In this document: one piece after another, positions 15,810 through 24,278 of the stretch
Position numbering within the stretch: the first letter of the stretch is position 1
Layout: every line of letters starts with the position of its first letter
Assembly (NCBI GenBank): GCA_029979565.1
Contig: JAPOHG010000013.1
Span: 1-44,084, forward strand
Reading direction: 5' to 3'
DNA from: a bacterium
GTDB lineage: Bacteria; Bacteroidota; Bacteroidia; Flavobacteriales_D; Sanyastnellaceae
Length of the DNA: 44,084 nucleotides
The notes under the pieces: model-generated
Told to the model about the DNA's origin: nothing
What the model saw: the letters and a program-made list of their open reading frames with translations, nothing else
The model's database searches: none
Program-made: the position numbers and the translations under genes

Positions 15810-16898
15810 ATGGCAAAGAAGACGATTCTCAACAAAGCTTCAGAGAAGTTCCTCGAAGCATACCTCAATAACGCAAGCCCAACCGGATTCGAAAGCAGCG
15901 GGCAGCAACTGTGGTTGGACTACATCCGACCGTACATCGATGAGCACATTGTTGATACCTACGGCACGGTCGTTGGGGTGGTCAATCCCGATGCCCCGTA
16001 CAAGGTGGTTATCGAAGCCCATGCCGATGAAATCAGCTATTTCGTTCACTACATCACCGCCGACGGGTACATCTACCTGCGCAGAAACGGCGGAAGTGAC
16101 CACCAGATTGCGCCTTCCAAGCGCGTCGACATCCACACGCCGAAAGGCATTGTAAAAGGCGTCTTCGGGTGGCCCGCCATCCACACCCGCACCGCGGGCA
16201 AGGAGGAAGCTCCAACCATGAAAAACATCTTCCTCGATGTGGGCGCCAAAGACAAGAAAGAGGTTGAAAAGATGGGCATCCACGTCGGATGCGTGGTCAC
16301 CTATGAGGACACCTTTATGGTCTTGAACAAGGACTGGTATGTTGCCCGCGCCCTGGACAACAGAGCCGGAGGGTTCATGATTGCTGAGGTCGCGCGCCTG
16401 CTGCATGAAGAAGGCACCAAATTGCCTTTTGGCCTTTACATCACCAACTCGGTACAAGAAGAAATCGGACTGCGCGGGGCCCAGATGATCGCCGAGCGGA
16501 TTTCACCGGACGTCGCCATTGTAACCGACGTTACCCACTGCACGCACACCCCGATGATGAACAAAATCGACAACGGAGACGTGGCTGCGGGCAAAGGCCC
16601 GGGCGTGACCTACGGACCGGCAGTCCAGAACAACCTCTTGCAGCGCATCATTGACACGGCCGATGCAGAGAAAATCCCACTGCAGCGTATGGCAGCCAGC
16701 CGCTTTACCGGAACCGACACCGACGCGTTTGCCTACTCCAACAAAGGCGTGGCGAGCGCGTTGATCAGCCTCCCACTTCGTTACATGCACACCACCGTGG
16801 AGATGGTGCACCGCCAGGACGTGGAGAATTGCATCAAGCTGATCCTCGCCACCTTGAAAAACATCAAGCCCGGAGAGGACTTCAAGTACATCCGCTGA
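15810..16898 (+). CDS. M42-family metallopeptidase (glutamyl aminopeptidase/cellulase M type)
   Basis: A 362-residue zinc or cobalt aminopeptidase. Metal ligands and catalytic residues are in VVIEAHADEISY (H71, D73), ARALDNRAGG (bridging aspartate), NSVQEEIGLRGA (catalytic Glu pair) and IVTDVTHCTHTP. A late histidine in RYMHTTVEMVH completes the site. M42 enzymes form dodecameric tetrahedral aminopeptidases that trim peptides in the cytoplasm. It is a single-gene unit between a terminator and the convergent receiver gene, whose stop codon is directly adjacent. Confidence 0.92.
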   Translation: MAKKTILNKASEKFLEAYLNNASPTGFESSGQQLWLDYIRPYIDEHIVDTYGTVVGVVNPDAPYKVVIEAHADEISYFVHYITADGYIYLRRNGGSDHQIAPSKRVDIHTPKGIVKGVFGWPAIHTRTAGKEEAPTMKNIFLDVGAKDKKEVEKMGIHVGCVVTYEDTFMVLNKDWYVARALDNRAGGFMIAEVARLLHEEGTKLPFGLYITNSVQEEIGLRGAQMIAERISPDVAIVTDVTHCTHTPMMNKIDNGDVAAGKGPGVTYGPAVQNNLLQRIIDTADAEKIPLQRMAASRFTGTDTDAFAYSNKGVASALISLPLRYMHTTVEMVHRQDVENCIKLILATLKNIKPGEDFKYIR

Positions 16899-17435
16899 TT
16901 ACGCCTGCAACAGTCGCTGAATGGCGTTCGCGAGGTCAAACACCCGCGCGGTCTCTTCGGCTGAAAGACCACCCTTGTCGGCCGTGAGCGATTGAATTTT
17001 GACGGCCTCTTGCTCGGCTTTGCTCATGCGCTGCTGCAAGTCCTCACCCCGCAAAACAATGGCCTGGCGATCGTGGTATAGTTGCGAAGCTTCGTTGACC
17101 AAATCACGCAACTCCGATTCGTTCCACGGCTTCGCGATGTACTTGTAAATCTGGCCCTTGTTGATCGCATCGATGACCGCGTCGATATCGGCATGGCCGG
17201 TGAGGAGCATGCGCACCGGGTCGGGGTAATCGGGCGCGATGAGTTCAAAAAACTCCACCCCACTCAATTTGGGCATTTTCTGGTCCGAAATGATGACCTC
17301 GATGGGGTGCTCGCGGAGGATGCGCACCGCGTCGGTCGGCTCGGTGGTCACGTGCACCTGGAAATCCCGTCGAAACGCTGCACGAAACGCAGTCAAATTG
17401 TGCGCCTCATCGTCGAGGTAGAGTACGTTGATCAT
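16899..17435 (-). CDS. Response regulator, RpfG-like receiver domain protein
   Basis: A 178-residue protein made of one receiver domain (residues about 1-120) and a C-terminal helical or coiled-coil tail, with no recognisable output domain. Acidic pocket D8-D9, phosphoacceptor D51 (IISDQKMP), T79 and K102 (YKYIAKPW) are all present. The Q after the aspartate and the GQIYKYI stretch are typical of receivers related to RpfG and other HD-GYP regulators, but no HD-GYP domain follows. Its ATG overlaps the histidine kinase stop (ATGA at 17435-17432), so it is the likely partner. It is the last gene of the E1-like/acyltransferase/kinase operon. Confidence 0.88.
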   Translation of the reverse strand: MINVLYLDDEAHNLTAFRAAFRRDFQVHVTTEPTDAVRILREHPIEVIISDQKMPKLSGVEFFELIAPDYPDPVRMLLTGHADIDAVIDAINKGQIYKYIAKPWNESELRDLVNEASQLYHDRQAIVLRGEDLQQRMSKAEQEAVKIQSLTADKGGLSAEETARVFDLANAIQRLLQA

Positions 17436-19570
17436 AATGGAAATCGAATGATGAATTCTGTGCCCACGCCTTCTTCGGACTCAACCTCGACTTCAGCATT
17501 GTGATCGCTTAAAATGCCCATCACAATACTCAAGCCCAAGCCCGTCCCTTCGCCCACCGGCTTCGTGGTAAAAAACGGATCAAAAATCTGCGACTTAACC
17601 GCTTCGGACATCCCGGGCCCAGCATCCTTGATGCGCACTTCAGCCCATTCTTGCCCAATGCTTTCCACCCGATCTGTTTCGATGGATAGGATGTTCTCTT
17701 CCACCTCACGTCCAAGGGCATCCATCGCTTGAATCGCATTGGTGATGATGTTCATAAAGACTTGGTTCAAACGGCCCGGTTGGCACATCACCGGTGGCAT
17801 TTCCTCTCCCAAGTCCAATTGCAAAACCGCTGCATCTTTCAAATTGCTACGCAATACAATCAACGTCGATTCCAGCAGTTCATTGAGCTGGGCTTGGATG
17901 AAATTATCCCCGTCCATGCGGCTGAAAATGCGCAGGCCCTTGACGATTTCAGAGGTACGAACGGTGCCGTCTTCAATGCCATTGAGCAACTCCTCAATCT
18001 CCTGTTGCGTAAATTCAATGTCCAGTTGGGACAATTTCTCCTTCACCCCATTTACCTGCTCATGCAAATCAGCCGCCGCAGGATCCATCACTTTCACGAG
18101 GTCAATGACAGCGTTGAGGTCCTCGAAATCCCGTCGCAAGGACTGTGCACTCGATGAAACGAAATTGATGGGGTTGTTCAGTTCATGGGCAATGCCTGCG
18201 GTCAACTGACCAATCGATGCGAGCTTCTCGGATTGCACCAATTGCTGCTGTGCGGACTGCAATTCCTCCAAGGTGGTTCGCATGCTCGCATTCACCGCTT
18301 CTAAATCTGCCGTTCGGTCGCGTACGCGCTCTTCAAGTTTGGTGTTCTGCTCGCGCACCATGCGCTCGTTGATTTGGGAAATGCGCAGCTGCTCTTCCCG
18401 CGCATGGGCACTCTCCTTTTTGAGCTGGTTGATGCGGCTGGCCAATGCAAGGCTGAGCAGAACCATCTCAATGGCACTGCCAAGGGGCAAAGCGAAGAAG
18501 GTCCAAGCATTGTACGGAATGACCCCGGCATCTTTCAACACAAAAACAAACACGGCTACAATGAAAATCGAAAAGGCCAACAGGAAATACTTCGCTGGGC
18601 TATACCCCTTGCGCATGGTGATGATGGCACCGGGGATGAAGAAGAAAATGGCCGCCGCGCAAAAATTGATGACGTTATACGCCCACACCAGCTGGCCAGA
18701 AACGGCGAGAACGAGGGCTACGAGGTAAACAACGAAATACCCGTTTAAAAGCTTGTGCAACCAAGGCACATAGCGGCTGAGCCGAAGGAAATTTTGGGCA
18801 AAAACAATGGTCGTCAACCCGCTAAATACCCCAAAAAAGTGCGTAATGCGCGCGTTCAACCACGGCCAAGCTTCCACGTTGAAATACGGCGCATACCCGT
18901 TGAGCACGAGTTGCGTGCCGCCGATCATCAATATGAACAACGAATACTCGAGGTAGCTGCGGTCCCCCACGCTGAAAAACAGGAACAGGTTGTAAAGCAG
19001 CATCACCAGTATCACCCCGAAATACGCTGCAAACAGAATATCCCGTTGGTGGGCATCGTTCAATACCTCACGCGGCCCCGCGATGCGCATGGGCAGCAGC
19101 AATGGCTTGGACGACTTCATGCGAAACACCGCGTGCAGTTCTTCGCATTCGACCAGCGGTATGGGAAATGTGGGGTACGTGCCAAACGCACCGTCATTCG
19201 CCCCATCCTGCAGCACACCCCGGTTGTAGGTCGCGATTACTTTGCCATCGCAGACCATGTAGCCCGTCAATTCATCAATGCCGGCGTTCTGAATCTCGAT
19301 TAACTGTCCGTTCTCACTGCGGCTGTCCAACTTCAACCGTACCCAACTCACCGCATCCGACAGACCCAGGCTCGGAACAGTTTGGTCCGCGGGGTCCCAG
19401 GCGTCGTGCTGAACCACCTCCGCCAGTCCCATGAGATCCGCTTGCAGTGAATCCCGCAAAATCTCGATGCGCTTTCCAATGAGCGATTGTGCTGCACCGG
19501 CTGAGACCACCGCCATGAACACCAAAAGGCACCACGCGCGCCATGGCCGTGTTCCTGTGGCAACAGCCAT
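17432..19570 (-). CDS. 7TM-DISM sensor histidine kinase
   Basis: The 712-residue protein has a signal peptide (cleavage near AGAAQ, residue 28), an extracytoplasmic 7TMR-DISMED2-like domain (about 35-165), seven membrane helices (about 178-380), a coiled coil (385-450) and a kinase core. The phosphoacceptor is H462 (GIAHELNNP); the ATP domain has the N-box NIITNAIQAM, DAGPGM (649-654) and GTGLGLS (675-681). DISM sensors are thought to bind small carbohydrate-like or other extracellular ligands. The start at 19570 is chosen because it begins the signal peptide and overlaps the stop of the acyltransferase gene (TGATG). It is immediately followed by its probable partner receiver. Confidence 0.92.
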   Translation of the reverse strand: MAVATGTRPWRAWCLLVFMAVVSAGAAQSLIGKRIEILRDSLQADLMGLAEVVQHDAWDPADQTVPSLGLSDAVSWVRLKLDSRSENGQLIEIQNAGIDELTGYMVCDGKVIATYNRGVLQDGANDGAFGTYPTFPIPLVECEELHAVFRMKSSKPLLLPMRIAGPREVLNDAHQRDILFAAYFGVILVMLLYNLFLFFSVGDRSYLEYSLFILMIGGTQLVLNGYAPYFNVEAWPWLNARITHFFGVFSGLTTIVFAQNFLRLSRYVPWLHKLLNGYFVVYLVALVLAVSGQLVWAYNVINFCAAAIFFFIPGAIITMRKGYSPAKYFLLAFSIFIVAVFVFVLKDAGVIPYNAWTFFALPLGSAIEMVLLSLALASRINQLKKESAHAREEQLRISQINERMVREQNTKLEERVRDRTADLEAVNASMRTTLEELQSAQQQLVQSEKLASIGQLTAGIAHELNNPINFVSSSAQSLRRDFEDLNAVIDLVKVMDPAAADLHEQVNGVKEKLSQLDIEFTQQEIEELLNGIEDGTVRTSEIVKGLRIFSRMDGDNFIQAQLNELLESTLIVLRSNLKDAAVLQLDLGEEMPPVMCQPGRLNQVFMNIITNAIQAMDALGREVEENILSIETDRVESIGQEWAEVRIKDAGPGMSEAVKSQIFDPFFTTKPVGEGTGLGLSIVMGILSDHNAEVEVESEEGVGTEFIIRFPL

Positions 19571-20331
19571 CACACCTCCAATCTGAATTTGAGGTTCAAC
19601 TCCCCTTTCGGGCCGTGCACCTGGTGCACCATTCCTTCCGGGTCCTGCCAAATGCCTTCCAGCAACTCCCGGACCTCAGGTTGGACGTCGGTCAGATGTT
19701 CAGGGAAAGTGTAACGAGCGATGGTCGCCCGCAACTTCGGCGTGGGGTAGGTGAAATAACCATCCTCTCCGATGCCTTCTTCGGTAAAGAAGGCCAACGG
19801 CTTTTGCATGCGGCGGGTCACGGGTGAAGTCAAGGCGAACAAGTGCCGCCCTCCGACCATCGTCAAGGTGGCCATGGCCGCTTGGATCATGAAGGTGGCC
19901 TCCACCCCCATGCCGGCCATTTCAATGCTGTTCCACATGCCCCCCAATTCGAAGGCTCCTTCTTCGACATAGCGTTCCATGTGTCCGCGGAGTCGGGAAT
20001 CTTGACTTCCAATCGCCTTGAGCATGGGAAGTTCGTTGGTCGTCTTGGCACCGTGCATGCGTGCCCCACCGAGTACGCGACGGCTGCGTCCATCCACCCC
20101 CGTCCCCTGCCCAACGGCAGCAATGACAATCACATTTGGGTTCCCGATCCACTCCCGATTGAAAGTGGTCAACTTCTTGATACCGTAAGCTTGGAGTACC
20201 GCTTGGTGACCGTCCACCAATTCATGGCAAATGTCCGCGTGCTGGTCGGCACGGAATACGTGCACTTCAGCCTGTGCGATACGTTCTGCTTGCCGGGCGC
20301 GATCAATTGACGGATTCAAGGAGCTGCTCAT
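19570..20331 (-). CDS. GNAT or acyl-homoserine-lactone-synthase-like acyltransferase (putative)
   Basis: A 253-residue protein without a certain family name. Segments resemble N-acyl amino acid/AHL-synthase-type GNAT folds: NPNVIVIAAVG, then RRVLGGARMHG where such enzymes have VVGGxRL, ELPMLKAI, GAFELGGMWNS where they have an ELSRLWV-like motif, and RHLFALTSPVTRRM near the C-terminal part. The product ends GPKGELNLKF. I recall similar proteins beside ThiF-like genes in Flavobacteriia. Its start (ATG 20331) overlaps the E1-like gene by 29 bp, and its stop overlaps the kinase start, so all four genes are coupled. Acyl donor and acceptor are unknown; a signal-making role is inferred from context. 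Confidence 0.6.
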   Translation of the reverse strand: MSSSLNPSIDRARQAERIAQAEVHVFRADQHADICHELVDGHQAVLQAYGIKKLTTFNREWIGNPNVIVIAAVGQGTGVDGRSRRVLGGARMHGAKTTNELPMLKAIGSQDSRLRGHMERYVEEGAFELGGMWNSIEMAGMGVEATFMIQAAMATLTMVGGRHLFALTSPVTRRMQKPLAFFTEEGIGEDGYFTYPTPKLRATIARYTFPEHLTDVQPEVRELLEGIWQDPEGMVHQVHGPKGELNLKFRLEV

Positions 20332-21376
20332 TCCATTCGAGGTAGTGGCGAGCATCCGGGATGTGCTCACCGAGAAAAACACTTCGGATCACCTGTGCTG
20401 CATGGGCTCCCCCAGCGGCTACATCGGTGTACAATTGTGGCCATCCGACAAGGGTTGTGCCAACGGCCTGCAGACTGCCTACGCCACGCGCTGATGCTTG
20501 CGTCACATCAATAAAGGCATCGAAGAACTCTGGTTTCCATGTAGAAGCGCTGCGCATCTCCTCCAACATAGCATCGGAAATACGGCCATGGAGGAAGGGC
20601 GTTCCCGCCTCATCGTAACGTTCGATGTCAAGCATGCCACGGTCAGAGGTTTCCATGACCAGTGGGATGCCTTTGGCTTTGGCATGCCAGCGCAGGTTGG
20701 CCTTGGCACGGACTTGGTCACAAGCGTCGCAGACGAAGTCCAATCCGTTCATGAAAGCCTCAGCATTTTCCGGCGTAAAACCCTCCTGAAAAAGTTCCAC
20801 TTCAAAATAGGGGTCCACTTCCGCTATGGCTCGCGCTATGGCCACAGCCTTCGGGACGCCCAAATGGTGTACGCCGGTCTGAATCCGATTCAAGTTGGAC
20901 AACTCGAGCGCATCGTAATCCGCCAATTTTAACTTGCCGCAGATGCGCTCCATGGCAAGGGTCATGGCCAAGGCACTGCCCACCGAAAGGCCTGCAATGC
21001 CCACGCATTTCGTTGCGAGCTGTGCTTGTTCCTCCGATGTAATCTTATTTCGATTGCGGTTGGTTCGAACGGCAACAAATGCCGATTCGGGCAACAACCG
21101 CACCCAGGTTTGGCGCCAAGGAAACCACGCCCACGTGCCAAACGCTTCCCAGCCCTCCTCTCCAATTTCGCGCTGAATGGCTTCGGCCAAGGTGTCCGGT
21201 TGCTGTCGCAAGGCAGGTGTTCGGGTCACCAACCACTCCACCAGCTGCTCTTCCAGCGTATCAACGACTTCGCCCTTCCTGTGCCGCATAGCTTGTTCGC
21301 AAGCAACACGCTCCGCCCGATTCTCAAGCCGGTAAAGCACCGGCTGTGTGGTGTATGAAGGGACGTCGACTACCAT
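20303..21376 (-). CDS. ThiF/E1-like adenylating enzyme (Rv1355c/MoeY-like)
   Basis: The 357-residue protein has an N-terminal helical part (1-110) and an E1-like Rossmann domain. The nucleotide loop is GIAGLSVGSALA (126-137), followed by the ADYDALELSNLNR pattern (D153, D155, N161, R164), K176 and the DFVCDACDQ region carrying the acidic residue that binds magnesium. No CxxC zinc pair and no obvious catalytic cysteine of the thioester-forming E1 enzymes is seen, so it may only adenylate a carboxylate. The loop wording fits the Rv1355c/MoeY branch, whose nitroreductase half is missing here. ATG 21376 is chosen; a GTG at 21445 would add 23 residues. It opens the operon with the acyltransferase, kinase and receiver. 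Confidence 0.75.
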   Translation of the reverse strand: MVVDVPSYTTQPVLYRLENRAERVACEQAMRHRKGEVVDTLEEQLVEWLVTRTPALRQQPDTLAEAIQREIGEEGWEAFGTWAWFPWRQTWVRLLPESAFVAVRTNRNRNKITSEEQAQLATKCVGIAGLSVGSALAMTLAMERICGKLKLADYDALELSNLNRIQTGVHHLGVPKAVAIARAIAEVDPYFEVELFQEGFTPENAEAFMNGLDFVCDACDQVRAKANLRWHAKAKGIPLVMETSDRGMLDIERYDEAGTPFLHGRISDAMLEEMRSASTWKPEFFDAFIDVTQASARGVGSLQAVGTTLVGWPQLYTDVAAGGAHAAQVIRSVFLGEHIPDARHYLEWNEQLLESVN

Positions 21377-21515: not shown

Positions 21516-21938
21516 ATGACACCTTTCAACTCCACCCCGCTCATTTGGGTCGCCTTCGGAAGCACCGCCGAAAGCGAAAGCTTCGCGGAACGCATTCGGG
21601 ATTTTGCCGAAGCTCAAGCGCTCGCCGATTCGGAAGTATCGAATGCGGAGTTTGTTCATGCCAACGCAAAACACCAATCCGCCTGGCTCCTCATTGACGA
21701 AGAGATGCAAGGCAAATCCGCCATCAAGGCATTGGCGAAGCATGCCGCAGAAGCACACGAATATTTCCGTTGCATGGTCGTGGGCGAAATCCAGGCAGAA
21801 TCCTGGCCTAAGAACACCATCTCCCTTCCTTCGGACGCGCTTTCAACAGCTGTGATTGACCGGTTGCGCAATGAATCACACGTGTTGCGCATTGCCATCA
21901 GCCGAATCCGCCACATGCGCCGGCTCCAAAACCGATAA
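21516..21938 (+). CDS. Hypothetical protein, possible degenerate receiver fold
   Basis: A 140-residue soluble protein not recognised as a known family. The strand/helix pattern (PLIWVAFG, SESFAERIRDF, SAWLLIDEEMQGKSAIKAL, FRCMVVGEI, ISLPSDALSTAVIDRL) resembles a receiver domain, with LLIDEEM in the place of the phosphoacceptor strand, but the paired acids at the N-terminal strand and the conserved lysine are missing. If so it would be a pseudo-receiver. It is divergent from the E1-like gene (139 bp between start codons) and 3 bp from the stop of the convergent DUF4924 gene. Start at 21516 is the first ATG consistent with a clean N-terminus. Confidence 0.5.
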   Translation: MTPFNSTPLIWVAFGSTAESESFAERIRDFAEAQALADSEVSNAEFVHANAKHQSAWLLIDEEMQGKSAIKALAKHAAEAHEYFRCMVVGEIQAESWPKNTISLPSDALSTAVIDRLRNESHVLRIAISRIRHMRRLQNR

Positions 21939-21941
21939 GGC

Positions 21942-22457
21942 TTATTTGCCTTGGTAGATTTTAACGTGGCCTCGTGCAAGTGCATTGGCCATCTCTCGAA
22001 TGGGTTGCAATGCCGATTGGGTTTCTAAGGACACTTCCTCTTTCCTCATTTTCAATACCAGCCAACCATACAAGGCGGTCAACATCGTCTCCGTCGGGTG
22101 GCGCAAGCCTTCTTCCATTTTGTTTTGCTCCAATTCCCGTAGGACGGGCTCAGCGGTCTGGAAGGCGCTGACGTAGATTTCGTCTTCCATGGGGCCGGTG
22201 AGCAGGTCATGCAACAAGGCCAGTTCGGTCTGAACTTCAAGCACATCGGAAACGTGGCCTTTTTCCTCCAGTTTTTCGCGCTGCATCTGCGTGTTGAGCT
22301 TCAGCAACCAGTCGCAATCGGCACCGCCCGTTCCGTTGAACAAGCCTTCAATGGCCGTTTCCGAAAACTGTGCAGCGCGCACCAAGTCCTCCATCTGCCA
22401 GACGTACAAAACGTACTCGACGATGTGGGCGTTCTTCTTGGCTGCGGCGGTGCTCAT
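21942..22457 (-). CDS. DUF4924-family protein
   Basis: A 171-residue all-helical protein with the opening NAHIVEYVLYVWQMEDLVRAAQ, which is the hallmark of DUF4924, a Bacteroidota-specific family of unknown function. Its ATG overlaps the stop of the OmpH-like gene (ATGA at 22457-22454), so the two are coupled. No membrane segments or catalytic motifs are visible. Confidence 0.75.
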   Translation of the reverse strand: MSTAAAKKNAHIVEYVLYVWQMEDLVRAAQFSETAIEGLFNGTGGADCDWLLKLNTQMQREKLEEKGHVSDVLEVQTELALLHDLLTGPMEDEIYVSAFQTAEPVLRELEQNKMEEGLRHPTETMLTALYGWLVLKMRKEEVSLETQSALQPIREMANALARGHVKIYQGK

Positions 22458-23074
22458 TCTTCGCTCTCCTCTGTATTCGCTTCTTCGGCCGGTGGATCGT
22501 ACCGGTCGTTCATGAAGTCCAGCAAGGCATTCGTGACATCGTAGTCGGGTGCTCCATACAGCACGCCTTCGCCGGACAAGCCCCAGTTCAATACCACTTC
22601 CAATCCATTTTCTTCCGCAAACACGGCCACTTCTTCGCTCAACCGCGCCGCCACCTCCGCTTGGAGTTGATTCTCCAACTGCACCAAACGGGTTTGCGAT
22701 TCATTTTGGATCTGAGCGAGCTGCGCTTCGATCTCGTACAATCGCGACTGTGCAATTTGCACCTCGTCTTCGGCCGCATTGGGTCCACTTGCGTATGCAA
22801 TCAGTTCTTGGGCCTCCTCCTGCAGTGGAGTAGCCATGCGCTCAACGGCCATTTGGGCTTGTTGAACCGCCACGAACAAGGCGCGTTCGCGTTCGGCGAT
22901 GAATTCGTAATTGGCCTGGATGGAGTCTCCGTGGACGTACGCTACGGTTGCCGCTTGCCCTTCTTGCAGGGAAGTAGAGAGTTCAGGGGCCGTGTCGCCG
23001 ACTTGGATGTAGGTCAAGATGGCGAGCCAAATGCCAAGGCAGGCAATGAGAATGGAAACAAGCTGGTTGTTCAT
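22454..23074 (-). CDS. OmpH/Skp-like periplasmic chaperone family protein
   Basis: The 206-residue protein has an N-terminal membrane segment or signal (LVSILIACLGIWLAILTYIQ), then VAYVHGDSIQANYEF, which corresponds to the start of mature Skp proteins, a long coiled coil (about 60-150), and the EENGLEVVLNWGLSGEGVLYGAPDYDVTNALLDFMN ending typical of OmpH family members. Skp holds unfolded outer membrane proteins in the periplasm; the hydrophobic start here looks more like an anchor than a cleaved signal. The C-terminus is acidic (about the last 15 residues). It is followed by the coupled DUF4924 gene and preceded by a small gene 9 bp upstream. Confidence 0.82.
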   Translation of the reverse strand: MNNQLVSILIACLGIWLAILTYIQVGDTAPELSTSLQEGQAATVAYVHGDSIQANYEFIAERERALFVAVQQAQMAVERMATPLQEEAQELIAYASGPNAAEDEVQIAQSRLYEIEAQLAQIQNESQTRLVQLENQLQAEVAARLSEEVAVFAEENGLEVVLNWGLSGEGVLYGAPDYDVTNALLDFMNDRYDPPAEEANTEESEE

Positions 23075-23083
23075 GGAATGGGG

Positions 23084-23311
23084 TTAGGGTGTGTCTTGAA
23101 GCAATAGCGCCCGCATGGAAACAAAGCATTTGAGCACGTCGTCGGCCATGCGTTCGGCACTTGATTTTACGTCCTCGAGGGAAGCCGTTTCCGCATCGAA
23201 TTTGTACGTCTGTTCGTACCGATCCAACTCGTAGCGCAACTGGTACTTGTCGTTCCAGTGGTTGATGGTGATCCGCATCAGTGGGTGCGGTACGTGGGCG
23301 ACGGTTCGCAT
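23084..23311 (-). CDS. Small conserved-looking hypothetical protein
   Basis: A 75-residue, charged protein of unknown function (YQLRYELDRYEQTYKF in the centre). An internal ATG at 23278 (MRITINHWNDKY) may be the true start, giving 64 residues. It lies 9 bp before the OmpH-like gene on the same strand and is probably the first gene of that operon. The opposite strand has the DUF1853 gene 40 bp away. No motif is recognised; it is called from its position, size and clean frame. Confidence 0.55.
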   Translation of the reverse strand: MRTVAHVPHPLMRITINHWNDKYQLRYELDRYEQTYKFDAETASLEDVKSSAERMADDVLKCFVSMRALLLQDTP

Positions 23312-23351
23312 GGTTTTCGAGTAACTTCAGCGCGAAGATAGGCCTTCAAAC

Positions 23352-24278
23352 ATGGGAATTCAGCGCAATTGGCCCCCACCGCTCGACGACGTGCTCAACG
23401 CCTGTCCAACGCGTGGGCTGCAAGAAGTCGCATGGTGCGTTGGAAGCCCCCCGCTGATGGCATCCAGCCCAGGGGTCAACCACATCGGACAGGCTGCAGC
23501 GGAGTCGGCCCGATCGGAATTCGACGCCTGGATGCACCGCGCATTGGCAGCAGGAATTGAACGCGAAACATTCGAAAGTAAACCAGGCAATCAGCGCCTC
23601 GGTCACCGATTTGAACGGTGCGTATCCACTTGGTTTCATCACCACCCGGAGTGGGCAATCGAGGCGGCCAACCACGTGGTGCAATTGGGCAAACGAACAG
23701 CAGGTGAAATCGACTTGCTGGTGGAACGCGCCGGTGAAGTCCTGCATCTCGAGTTGGCCGTGAAGTTTTATTTGAGCACTTCCGGTTCTGCGCAGTGGGA
23801 TACGTGGGTGGGTGTGGACCCGGTGGACCGCCTTGACGTTAAACTCGACAAATTCAAAACGCAGTTGGCCCTCAGTGCGCAGCCCGAAATTGCTGCACAC
23901 CTCAACCAATTCGGATGGGACGTTCACCAACGAGGCGCATGGATGAAAGGGTGGTTTTTCGAACATTTCAAGCGCATGACAGCTCCTGTCCTTCCCAGAA
24001 ACGCCTCGTTCGACTGCAATGTCGGTTGGTGGTGCCATGAAAAAGACTGGCCACAAATCTGGACCGCCGTCGGAGACTGGGTGGCCATCGCTCCGCACCA
24101 CTGGCTGCGTGTCCGTCACGATGCAGCAGACGTGGTCGACCTGACAGATACTGGAGCGCTTCCGACTGGAATGCTGAAAAACAACGCTTGCATGGTGGCC
24201 ATGGTTGAGCGCGAGAACGGTGTGTGTCGGGAAATGATGCGGGGAATTGTGGTGCACGACCATTGGCCACGGGGCTGA
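23352..24278 (+). CDS. DUF1853-family protein, PD-(D/E)xK nuclease-like
   Basis: A 308-residue soluble protein. The core GEIDLLVERAGEVLHLELAVKFYL has the D...(E/x)xK spacing of PD-(D/E)xK nuclease folds (D in GEIDLL, E-x-x-x-K in LELAVKF), and GHRFERCVSTWF upstream resembles the first helix. This is the layout of DUF1853, found in proteobacteria and bacteroidetes with unknown function. Whether it cuts DNA is unknown. It is a single plus-strand gene followed after 71 bp by a TonB-dependent receptor gene. Confidence 0.72.
   Translation: MGIQRNWPPPLDDVLNACPTRGLQEVAWCVGSPPLMASSPGVNHIGQAAAESARSEFDAWMHRALAAGIERETFESKPGNQRLGHRFERCVSTWFHHHPEWAIEAANHVVQLGKRTAGEIDLLVERAGEVLHLELAVKFYLSTSGSAQWDTWVGVDPVDRLDVKLDKFKTQLALSAQPEIAAHLNQFGWDVHQRGAWMKGWFFEHFKRMTAPVLPRNASFDCNVGWWCHEKDWPQIWTAVGDWVAIAPHHWLRVRHDAADVVDLTDTGALPTGMLKNNACMVAMVERENGVCREMMRGIVVHDHWPRG

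What the first reader, a model, noticed from the sequence alone, without database searches (positions are those of the whole stretch)
16899..21376. E1-like enzyme, acyltransferase, 7TM-DISM kinase and receiver: candidate signal-making and sensing system
Four genes run on one strand with stop/start overlaps (29 bp, TGATG, ATGA). An ATP-dependent adenylating enzyme of the ThiF/MoeY type and a GNAT or AHL-synthase-like acyltransferase could make a small acylated or activated molecule, and the kinase with its extracytoplasmic 7TM-DISM sensor and RpfG-like receiver could detect it. The receiver lacks an output domain, so it must act through a partner or by protein contact. I do not know a described system with this layout; it would be a new form of cell-cell or self-sensing.
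Basis: partly seen in the sequence, partly recalled or inferred. Interest (0 to 1): 0.8.

Follow-up and report, generated by a model that had tools for sequence, protein, structure and literature searches.

The report
Acyl-amino-acid synthase paired with sensor kinase
An uncultured bacterium carries, side by side, genes that look able to make a small fatty-acid/amino-acid molecule and a membrane receptor that may sense it; the pairing recurs in many related bacteria, which makes it a testable candidate for an unrecognised chemical signalling system.

Summary
In detail: four intact minus-strand genes (21376-16899) with the stated overlaps. The E1-like enzyme is the ThiF half of the Rv1355c (TrzS) family. 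The acyltransferase has no Pfam match, but its confident model is closest to FeeM and AHL synthases. In print, this enzyme pair (OxzAB, TyzACB, TrzAS) N-acylates an aromatic amino acid and cyclises it to an acyl-oxazolone, whose role a 2025 paper calls a major unresolved question. New is the partner: a 7TM-DISM histidine kinase lies beside the acyltransferase in 37 of 38 positive relatives, 13 of 13 genomes of a phylum-wide draw and 34 of 34 examined loci of a distant family (apparently Chitinophagaceae). In that family the tailoring gene varies (E1, ICMT-type or class I methyltransferase, FAD oxidase, none) while synthase and kinase stay together. Best reading: a synthase with its own sensor kinase, a self-sensing system. 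Product, ligand and cell-to-cell use are inferred, not shown. The window lacks the flavin oxidase of the characterised oxazolone pathways, so I do not file it as a full member.

The parts
20303..21376 (-). E1/ThiF-like enzyme, 357 aa, N-terminal (ThiF) half of the Rv1355c/TrzS family without the nitroreductase half; proposed cyclase of an N-acyl amino acid
   Evidence: Pfam ThiF; NF005901 E 4e-107; 45 invariant columns in 19 homologues incl. D153, D155, N163, R164, K176, D220
19570..20331 (-). FeeM/LuxI-fold N-acyltransferase, 253 aa; proposed N-acyl amino acid synthase
   Evidence: No Pfam match; model pLDDT 88.8, pTM 0.87; 13 best Foldseek PDB chains are BjaI, FeeM, RpaI, MesI
17432..19570 (-). 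Histidine kinase, 712 aa, DISMED2 + 7TM-DISM + HisKA + HATPase_c
   Evidence: Pfam; only 7TMR-DISM match in this 79.6%-complete genome; GIAHELNNP H-box
16899..17435 (-). Stand-alone response-regulator receiver, 178 aa, no output domain
   Evidence: Pfam Response_reg; D8, D9, D51, T79, K102 motifs present; receiver resembles that of NF053512 NosR-type c-di-GMP phosphodiesterases, E 9e-42 over residues 4-124
21516..21938 (+). Divergently transcribed 140-aa ORF, possible degenerate receiver; optional fifth part, membership uncertain
   Evidence: A homologous ORF at the same place in 9 of 9 near loci L085-L093; model pLDDT 88.2 with receiver-like order of strands and helices; profile comparison with the receivers found at this place in relatives negative; Foldseek mixed

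Best explanation
The operon is a small-molecule synthase with its own sensor kinase. Step 1 (inferred from fold and homology): the FeeM/LuxI-fold enzyme moves an acyl group from acyl-CoA or acyl-ACP to the amino group of an amino acid, probably an aromatic one. Step 2 (inferred): the E1/ThiF enzyme adenylates the carboxylate of that N-acyl amino acid and the amide oxygen closes the ring to an acyl-oxazolone, a molecule of AHL-like size with a masked carboxylate; without a flavin oxidase the ring stays saturated unless a distant enzyme desaturates it. Step 3 (inferred from the pairing only): the product or its hydrolysed form is read by the 7TM-DISM kinase, which phosphorylates the bare receiver; the receiver acts through a partner. 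Shown here: gene anatomy, domain families, the fold of the acyltransferase by prediction, conserved residues of the E1 domain, and the persistent synthase-kinase pairing also where the tailoring gene differs or is absent.
For: E1: NF005901 E 4e-107; D220 and other residues invariant in 19 of 19, D220 aligned with the Asp of TcdA structures. TrzS, TyzB and OxzB ThiF proteins cyclise N-acyl amino acids, TrzA/TyzA/OxzA supply them (PMC12856293 read in part; PMC10404671 passages). Acyltransferase: model close to FeeM and BjaI, the same two structures that PMC10404671 names for TyzA; its profile also finds TrzA-like neighbours in 2 of 4 actinobacterial plasmid loci (E 5.7e-7 and 1.8e-6 among 476 ORFs). 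E1-acyltransferase fusion in L106. Pairing with the kinase: 37 of 38 relatives (co-occurrence 37/1/2/20, Fisher p 1e-12, by genus 17/1/2/15, p 6e-7), 13 of 13 of the phylum draw, 34 of 34 examined in family f15, 67 of 80 best named E1 loci. In f15 the tailoring gene is E1 in 21, ICMT-type methyltransferase in 4, class I methyltransferase in 2, FAD-binding oxidase in 1, none in 5, undetermined in 1 of 34.
Against: No product or ligand evidence exists. The flavin oxidase of the characterised oxazolone pathways is missing in the window and no nitroreductase-family gene lies on its contig; the ThiF role in related stieleriacine-type clusters is called enigmatic (PMC12479983). Generic GNATs tie with LasI and BjaI in Z (1xeb 15.0) though over fewer residues. 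G053 has the enzymes without this kinase; L106 has a fused enzyme without a recognised kinase; 5 of 80 E1 loci with room have no adjacent same-strand acyltransferase (L116, L122, L126, L129, L137); 6 of 67 paired loci with room lack a same-strand receiver. Known tryptazolones stay mostly in the cell pellet, which fits poorly with an exported signal. The positive sets share members and many are close kin, so counts and p-values overstate independence.
Confidence: 0.57

Rival explanations
1. The kinase and receiver sense another envelope or environmental cue and control production of the acyl-amino-acid compound, which is a stress, antimicrobial or membrane metabolite and not a signal.
For: Operon linkage alone cannot tell regulator from receptor. 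Secreted N-acyl tyrosines with antimicrobial activity and a possible stress role of oxazolones are discussed in PMC12856293.
Against: The receiver in the window has no DNA-binding or other output, and the kinase stays with the acyltransferase when the modifying gene is changed or absent.
Confidence: 0.27
2. The kinase guards the cell against its own product: the compound is a membrane-active or antimicrobial metabolite and the two-component pair is a self-protection or envelope monitor.
For: 7TM-DISM sensors sit in the membrane and the product would be amphiphilic (inference). No transporter or other biosynthetic gene was labelled between these genes in the loci annotated.
Against: No immunity or export gene is a constant partner; long conserved co-inheritance of a single synthase and kinase fits sensing at least as well.
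Confidence: 0.1
3. E1 is a cofactor, sulfur-transfer or ubiquitin-like/defence enzyme and the operon is unrelated to oxazolones.
For: ThiF domain similarity to MoeB, ThiF and TcdA and weak PADLOC E1-E2 matches, best E 5e-14.
Against: Much stronger match to the Rv1355c family; no sequence of 19 has two CxxC motifs and 3 have one; PADLOC matches cover only residues about 101-260; adjacency to or fusion with the acyltransferase.
Confidence: 0.04
4. The genes are neighbours by synteny only, without shared function.
For: Flanking DUF4924, OmpH, DUF1853 and M42 genes are also syntenic in near relatives.
Against: The flanks change in distant genomes while the synthase-kinase pair stays, and the order of E1 and acyltransferase is swapped in 18 of 67 named loci.
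Confidence: 0.02

Closest known systems
TrzAS (Rv1356c-Rv1355c), TyzACB and OxzAB acyl-oxazolone pathways
   Same: N-acyltransferase of FeeM/BjaI-like fold next to a ThiF-family cyclase of the Rv1355c type (PMC12856293, PMC10404671)
   Different: Those carry a flavin-dependent oxidase, fused or adjacent; no histidine kinase is mentioned (the word kinase does not occur in either paper); trzAS neighbours are c-di-GMP genes
Stieleriacine, thalassotalic and kyonggic acid clusters
   Same: N-acyl amino acid synthase with ThiF, nitroreductase or methyltransferase genes (PMC12479983, section read)
   Different: Other phyla; no kinase (word absent); no oxazolone was observed there
LuxI-type AHL synthases and FeeM
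   Different: 10-14% identity; no Pfam autoinducer-synthase match
CqsA/CqsS, LqsA/LqsS and RpfF/RpfC synthase-kinase signalling pairs (recalled, no call)
   Same: Synthase gene beside a membrane histidine kinase
   Different: Unrelated synthases and sensor domains; here 7TM-DISM

Membership tests
Acyl-oxazolone biosynthesis cluster (Oxz/Tyz/Trz) | ThiF-family cyclase with conserved ATP-site Asp | tested here: met
   NF005901 E 4e-107; D220 invariant 19 of 19. That D220 equals D217 of TrzS is inferred from the TcdA alignment, not aligned directly
Acyl-oxazolone biosynthesis cluster (Oxz/Tyz/Trz) | Adjacent amino-acid N-acyltransferase of FeeM/BjaI-like fold | tested here: met
   29-bp overlap with E1
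Acyl-oxazolone biosynthesis cluster (Oxz/Tyz/Trz) | Flavin-dependent oxidase fused or adjacent | tested here: not met
   E1 ends before the nitroreductase half; three nitroreductase-family genes exist, all on other contigs. Relatives with a fused E1 exist (14 of 67 named loci with kinase)
Acyl-oxazolone biosynthesis cluster (Oxz/Tyz/Trz) | Makes an N-acyl oxazolone | not testable with these tools
   Needs chemistry
LuxI/FeeM N-acyl synthase | Fold | tested here: met
LuxI/FeeM N-acyl synthase | Sequence profile of the family | tested here: inconclusive
   No match for the window protein and no LuxI/FeeM model among the families listed for 68 homologues; profile search of PDB gives chance hits only
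Two-component system with 7TM-DISM kinase | 7TM-DISM sensor, phospho-acceptor and ATPase domains, receiver with acceptor Asp | tested here: met
Two-component system with 7TM-DISM kinase | Receiver with output domain | tested here: not met
   Only Response_reg in 178 aa; 7 of 14 aligned homologues continue into a kinase module
Quorum-sensing synthase-receptor pair | Synthase and receptor genes linked across lineages | tested here: met
Quorum-sensing synthase-receptor pair | Receptor responds to the product; density dependence | not testable with these tools
   Needs experiment
MoeB/ThiF sulfur-transfer E1 | Two CxxC zinc motifs (recalled) | tested here: not met
   0 of 19 have two, 3 of 19 have one, first 370 residues examined
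CBASS-type E1-E2 defence protein | E2 part joined to the E1 domain | tested here: not met
   PADLOC matches lie within about residues 101-260 and align to the E1 part of the models; all 357 aa otherwise match the Rv1355c model

The most novel reading that the evidence does not exclude
Bacteroidota carry a widespread, modular chemical signalling system that has not been described: a LuxI/FeeM-fold enzyme makes an N-acyl amino acid, an interchangeable enzyme (ThiF cyclase with or without flavin oxidase, ICMT-type methyltransferase, class I methyltransferase, FAD oxidase, or none) sets its chemical identity, and a dedicated 7TM-DISM kinase reads it through a receiver relay. Oxazolones would then be signals, a counterpart of AHLs in this phylum.
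Probability: 0.42. Interest if true: 0.92.

Novelty: new variant of a known kind. Interest (0 to 1): 0.76.

Why it matters
The authors who characterised acyl-oxazolone enzymes write that the physiological role of these molecules is a major unresolved question and note their likeness to cell-cell signals (PMC12856293, discussion). A sensor kinase that stays with the synthase across Bacteroidota makes this testable in cultured bacteria such as Chitinophaga, Algoriphagus or Dyadobacter strains that carry the operon. It would also give a class of 7TM-DISM kinases a concrete candidate ligand.

Tried and rejected
Cofactor, sulfur-transfer and defence readings of E1 were tested and are disfavoured. 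Sequence searches did not place the acyltransferase: Pfam none for the window protein, 3 of 68 homologues touch Acetyltransf_1 (best E 0.0012); PDB by phmmer and by profile gave chance hits; the predicted model was needed. The divergent 140-aa ORF looks receiver-like in its model, but hhalign against relatives' receivers gave probability 3.7 and Foldseek mixed receivers with other flavodoxin-like folds: open. G004 first looked like a loss of E1, acyltransferase and kinase; its M42 gene lies about 400 bases before the end of contig C167 and its DUF4924 gene is cut by the start of C129, so an assembly gap at the operon is likely. A plasmid search with an acyltransferase homologue found nothing. 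The GNAT beside the Streptomyces plasmid E1 matches PF13302 and not the family profile, and was not counted.

An error of mine: the kinase query was out of frame, so kinases are unlabelled there; searches use the corrected query, and re-annotates the same loci.

Literature, search listings. None of the listed papers was seen to describe the synthase-kinase layout; the library holds only open-licence PMC papers, and the original OxzAB paper was not among the results. For the 6, 4 and 6 papers I saw titles and abstract starts only.

Rows set aside or against: of 80 named E1 loci, 10 have no adjacent same-strand acyltransferase: 4 at contig ends (L103, L123, L125, L160), one fused (L106), five with room (L116 Allokutzneria, L122 Brevibacillus, L126 Polyangia with a homologue on the other strand, L129 Streptomyces, L137 Dyadobacter CY347). 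Three with acyltransferase but no kinase are contig ends (L101, L143, L150). Of 67 paired loci 59 have a same-strand receiver; of the 8 others L097 and L102 are contig ends and six have room (L104, L110, L124, L145, L146, L151). In f15, 34 of 38 positive genomes were examined; G545, G553, G547 and G477 were not. The named set, the relatives and the f15 draw share genomes, judged by equal contig lengths (for example G007 and L085, G456 and L163, G497 and L120), so the counts are not independent. Gene calls are mechanical ORFs labelled by phmmer. Whether E1 exists elsewhere in the genomes of the five loci without a tailoring gene was not tested.
Full report
WHAT IS THERE. The window is contig C4 of a 1.96-Mb, 79.6%-complete genome. 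Its nearest named relatives are Flavobacteriales MAGs such as UBA5692 (E1 85% identical) and UBA979. An M42 peptidase gene lies on one side, DUF4924, OmpH and DUF1853 genes on the other.

THE SIGNALLING PAIR. The kinase carries DISMED2, 7TM-DISM, HisKA and HATPase_c and is the only 7TM-DISM protein found in the genome. The receiver has the acidic pocket, acceptor, Thr and Lys motifs and no output; it resembles the receiver of NosR-type c-di-GMP phosphodiesterases (NF053512, E 9e-42 over residues 4-124). In 7 of 14 homologues aligned the same gene continues into a kinase module (Pfam for L038), and a further small receiver often follows.

CONSERVATION. Anchored on the acyltransferase: 38 of 60 relatives have it, and in 37 of the 38 a kinase orthologue (E under 1e-100) lies directly beside it by coordinates. 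The table is 37 both, 1 acyltransferase only (G053), 2 kinase only, 20 neither (Fisher p 1e-12; by genus 17/1/2/15, p 6e-7; close kin inflate this). Both kinase-only genomes have the kinase cut by or at a contig end (L214, L215), and G004 among the 20 is probably an assembly gap. Phylum draw: 13 of 395 genomes positive; kinase in line in 13 of 13 (11, G000 and G025). Anchored on E1: of the 80 best named loci 70 have an adjacent acyltransferase, 67 the kinase next, 59 a same-strand receiver; order E1-acyltransferase-kinase 49, acyltransferase-E1-kinase 18. Among them are cultured Chitinophaga, Sphingobacterium, Algoriphagus, Dyadobacter, Pedobacter, Mucilaginibacter and Cryomorpha strains. L106 is an E1-acyltransferase fusion. 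These sets overlap and are not independent.

THE TELLING VARIATION. In the 34 f15 loci the tailoring gene is E1 in 21, an ICMT-type methyltransferase in 4, a class I methyltransferase in 2, an FAD-binding oxidase in 1, absent in 5 and undetermined (contig end) in 1. The constant core is synthase plus kinase; what varies is the enzyme that would modify the acyl amino acid. E1 enzymes activate carboxylates and ICMT methylates them (established for the families, recalled), so masking of the carboxylate may be a shared theme, as the lactone does in AHLs. This is inference.

MECHANISM. Most likely the synthase makes an N-acyl amino acid, E1 activates and cyclises it, and the kinase reads the product and phosphorylates the receiver. 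Enzyme steps: inferred from homology and fold, about 0.8. Sensing: inferred from linkage only, about 0.6. Use between cells: open; acyl-tryptophans were found mainly in supernatants and tryptazolones mainly in cells (PMC12856293), so the exported form may be the acyl amino acid.

STANDING. The window is not filed as a full oxazolone cluster: the flavin oxidase of the characterised pathways is missing, and the three nitroreductase-family genes found are on other contigs, so a distant desaturase is possible but unshown. As far as homology tells it works like such a cluster up to the cyclised product. No listed paper was seen to describe the synthase-kinase layout, within an open-licence library. 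Beside trzAS and two Rhodococcus relatives lie c-di-GMP genes (PMC12856293; GGDEF proteins), a second hint that these molecules touch signalling.

Noticed in passing
window 21516-21938 (+): Conserved 140-aa ORF divergent from the operon, with a receiver-like predicted fold and a nearly invariant Asp61 at the end of the third strand; no Pfam match.
   Followed up: partly
L106:6409-8307: Saprospiraceae MAG with E1 and acyltransferase fused in one 632-aa protein and no recognised kinase beside it.
   Followed up: partly
L048:4902-5612 (G053): The one acyltransferase-positive relative without the kinase has instead a hydrophobic protein, cut by the contig end, without a significant Pfam match.
   Followed up: partly
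L165:3807-8055 and L167:3865-8010: Rhodococcus plasmids with GGDEF gene, TrzA-like gene and Rv1355c-family gene side by side.
   Followed up: partly
L203:7296-11569: Fused-size E1 gene followed by two tandem acyltransferase genes and the kinase.
   Followed up: no
L077, L078, L208, L209; L199, L200; L201: Variant loci in which an ICMT-type methyltransferase, a class I methyltransferase or an FAD-binding oxidase stands where E1 stands elsewhere.
   Followed up: yes
window 15810-16898 and 21942-24278: M42 peptidase on one flank and DUF4924, OmpH and DUF1853 genes on the other are largely syntenic in near relatives.
   Followed up: no
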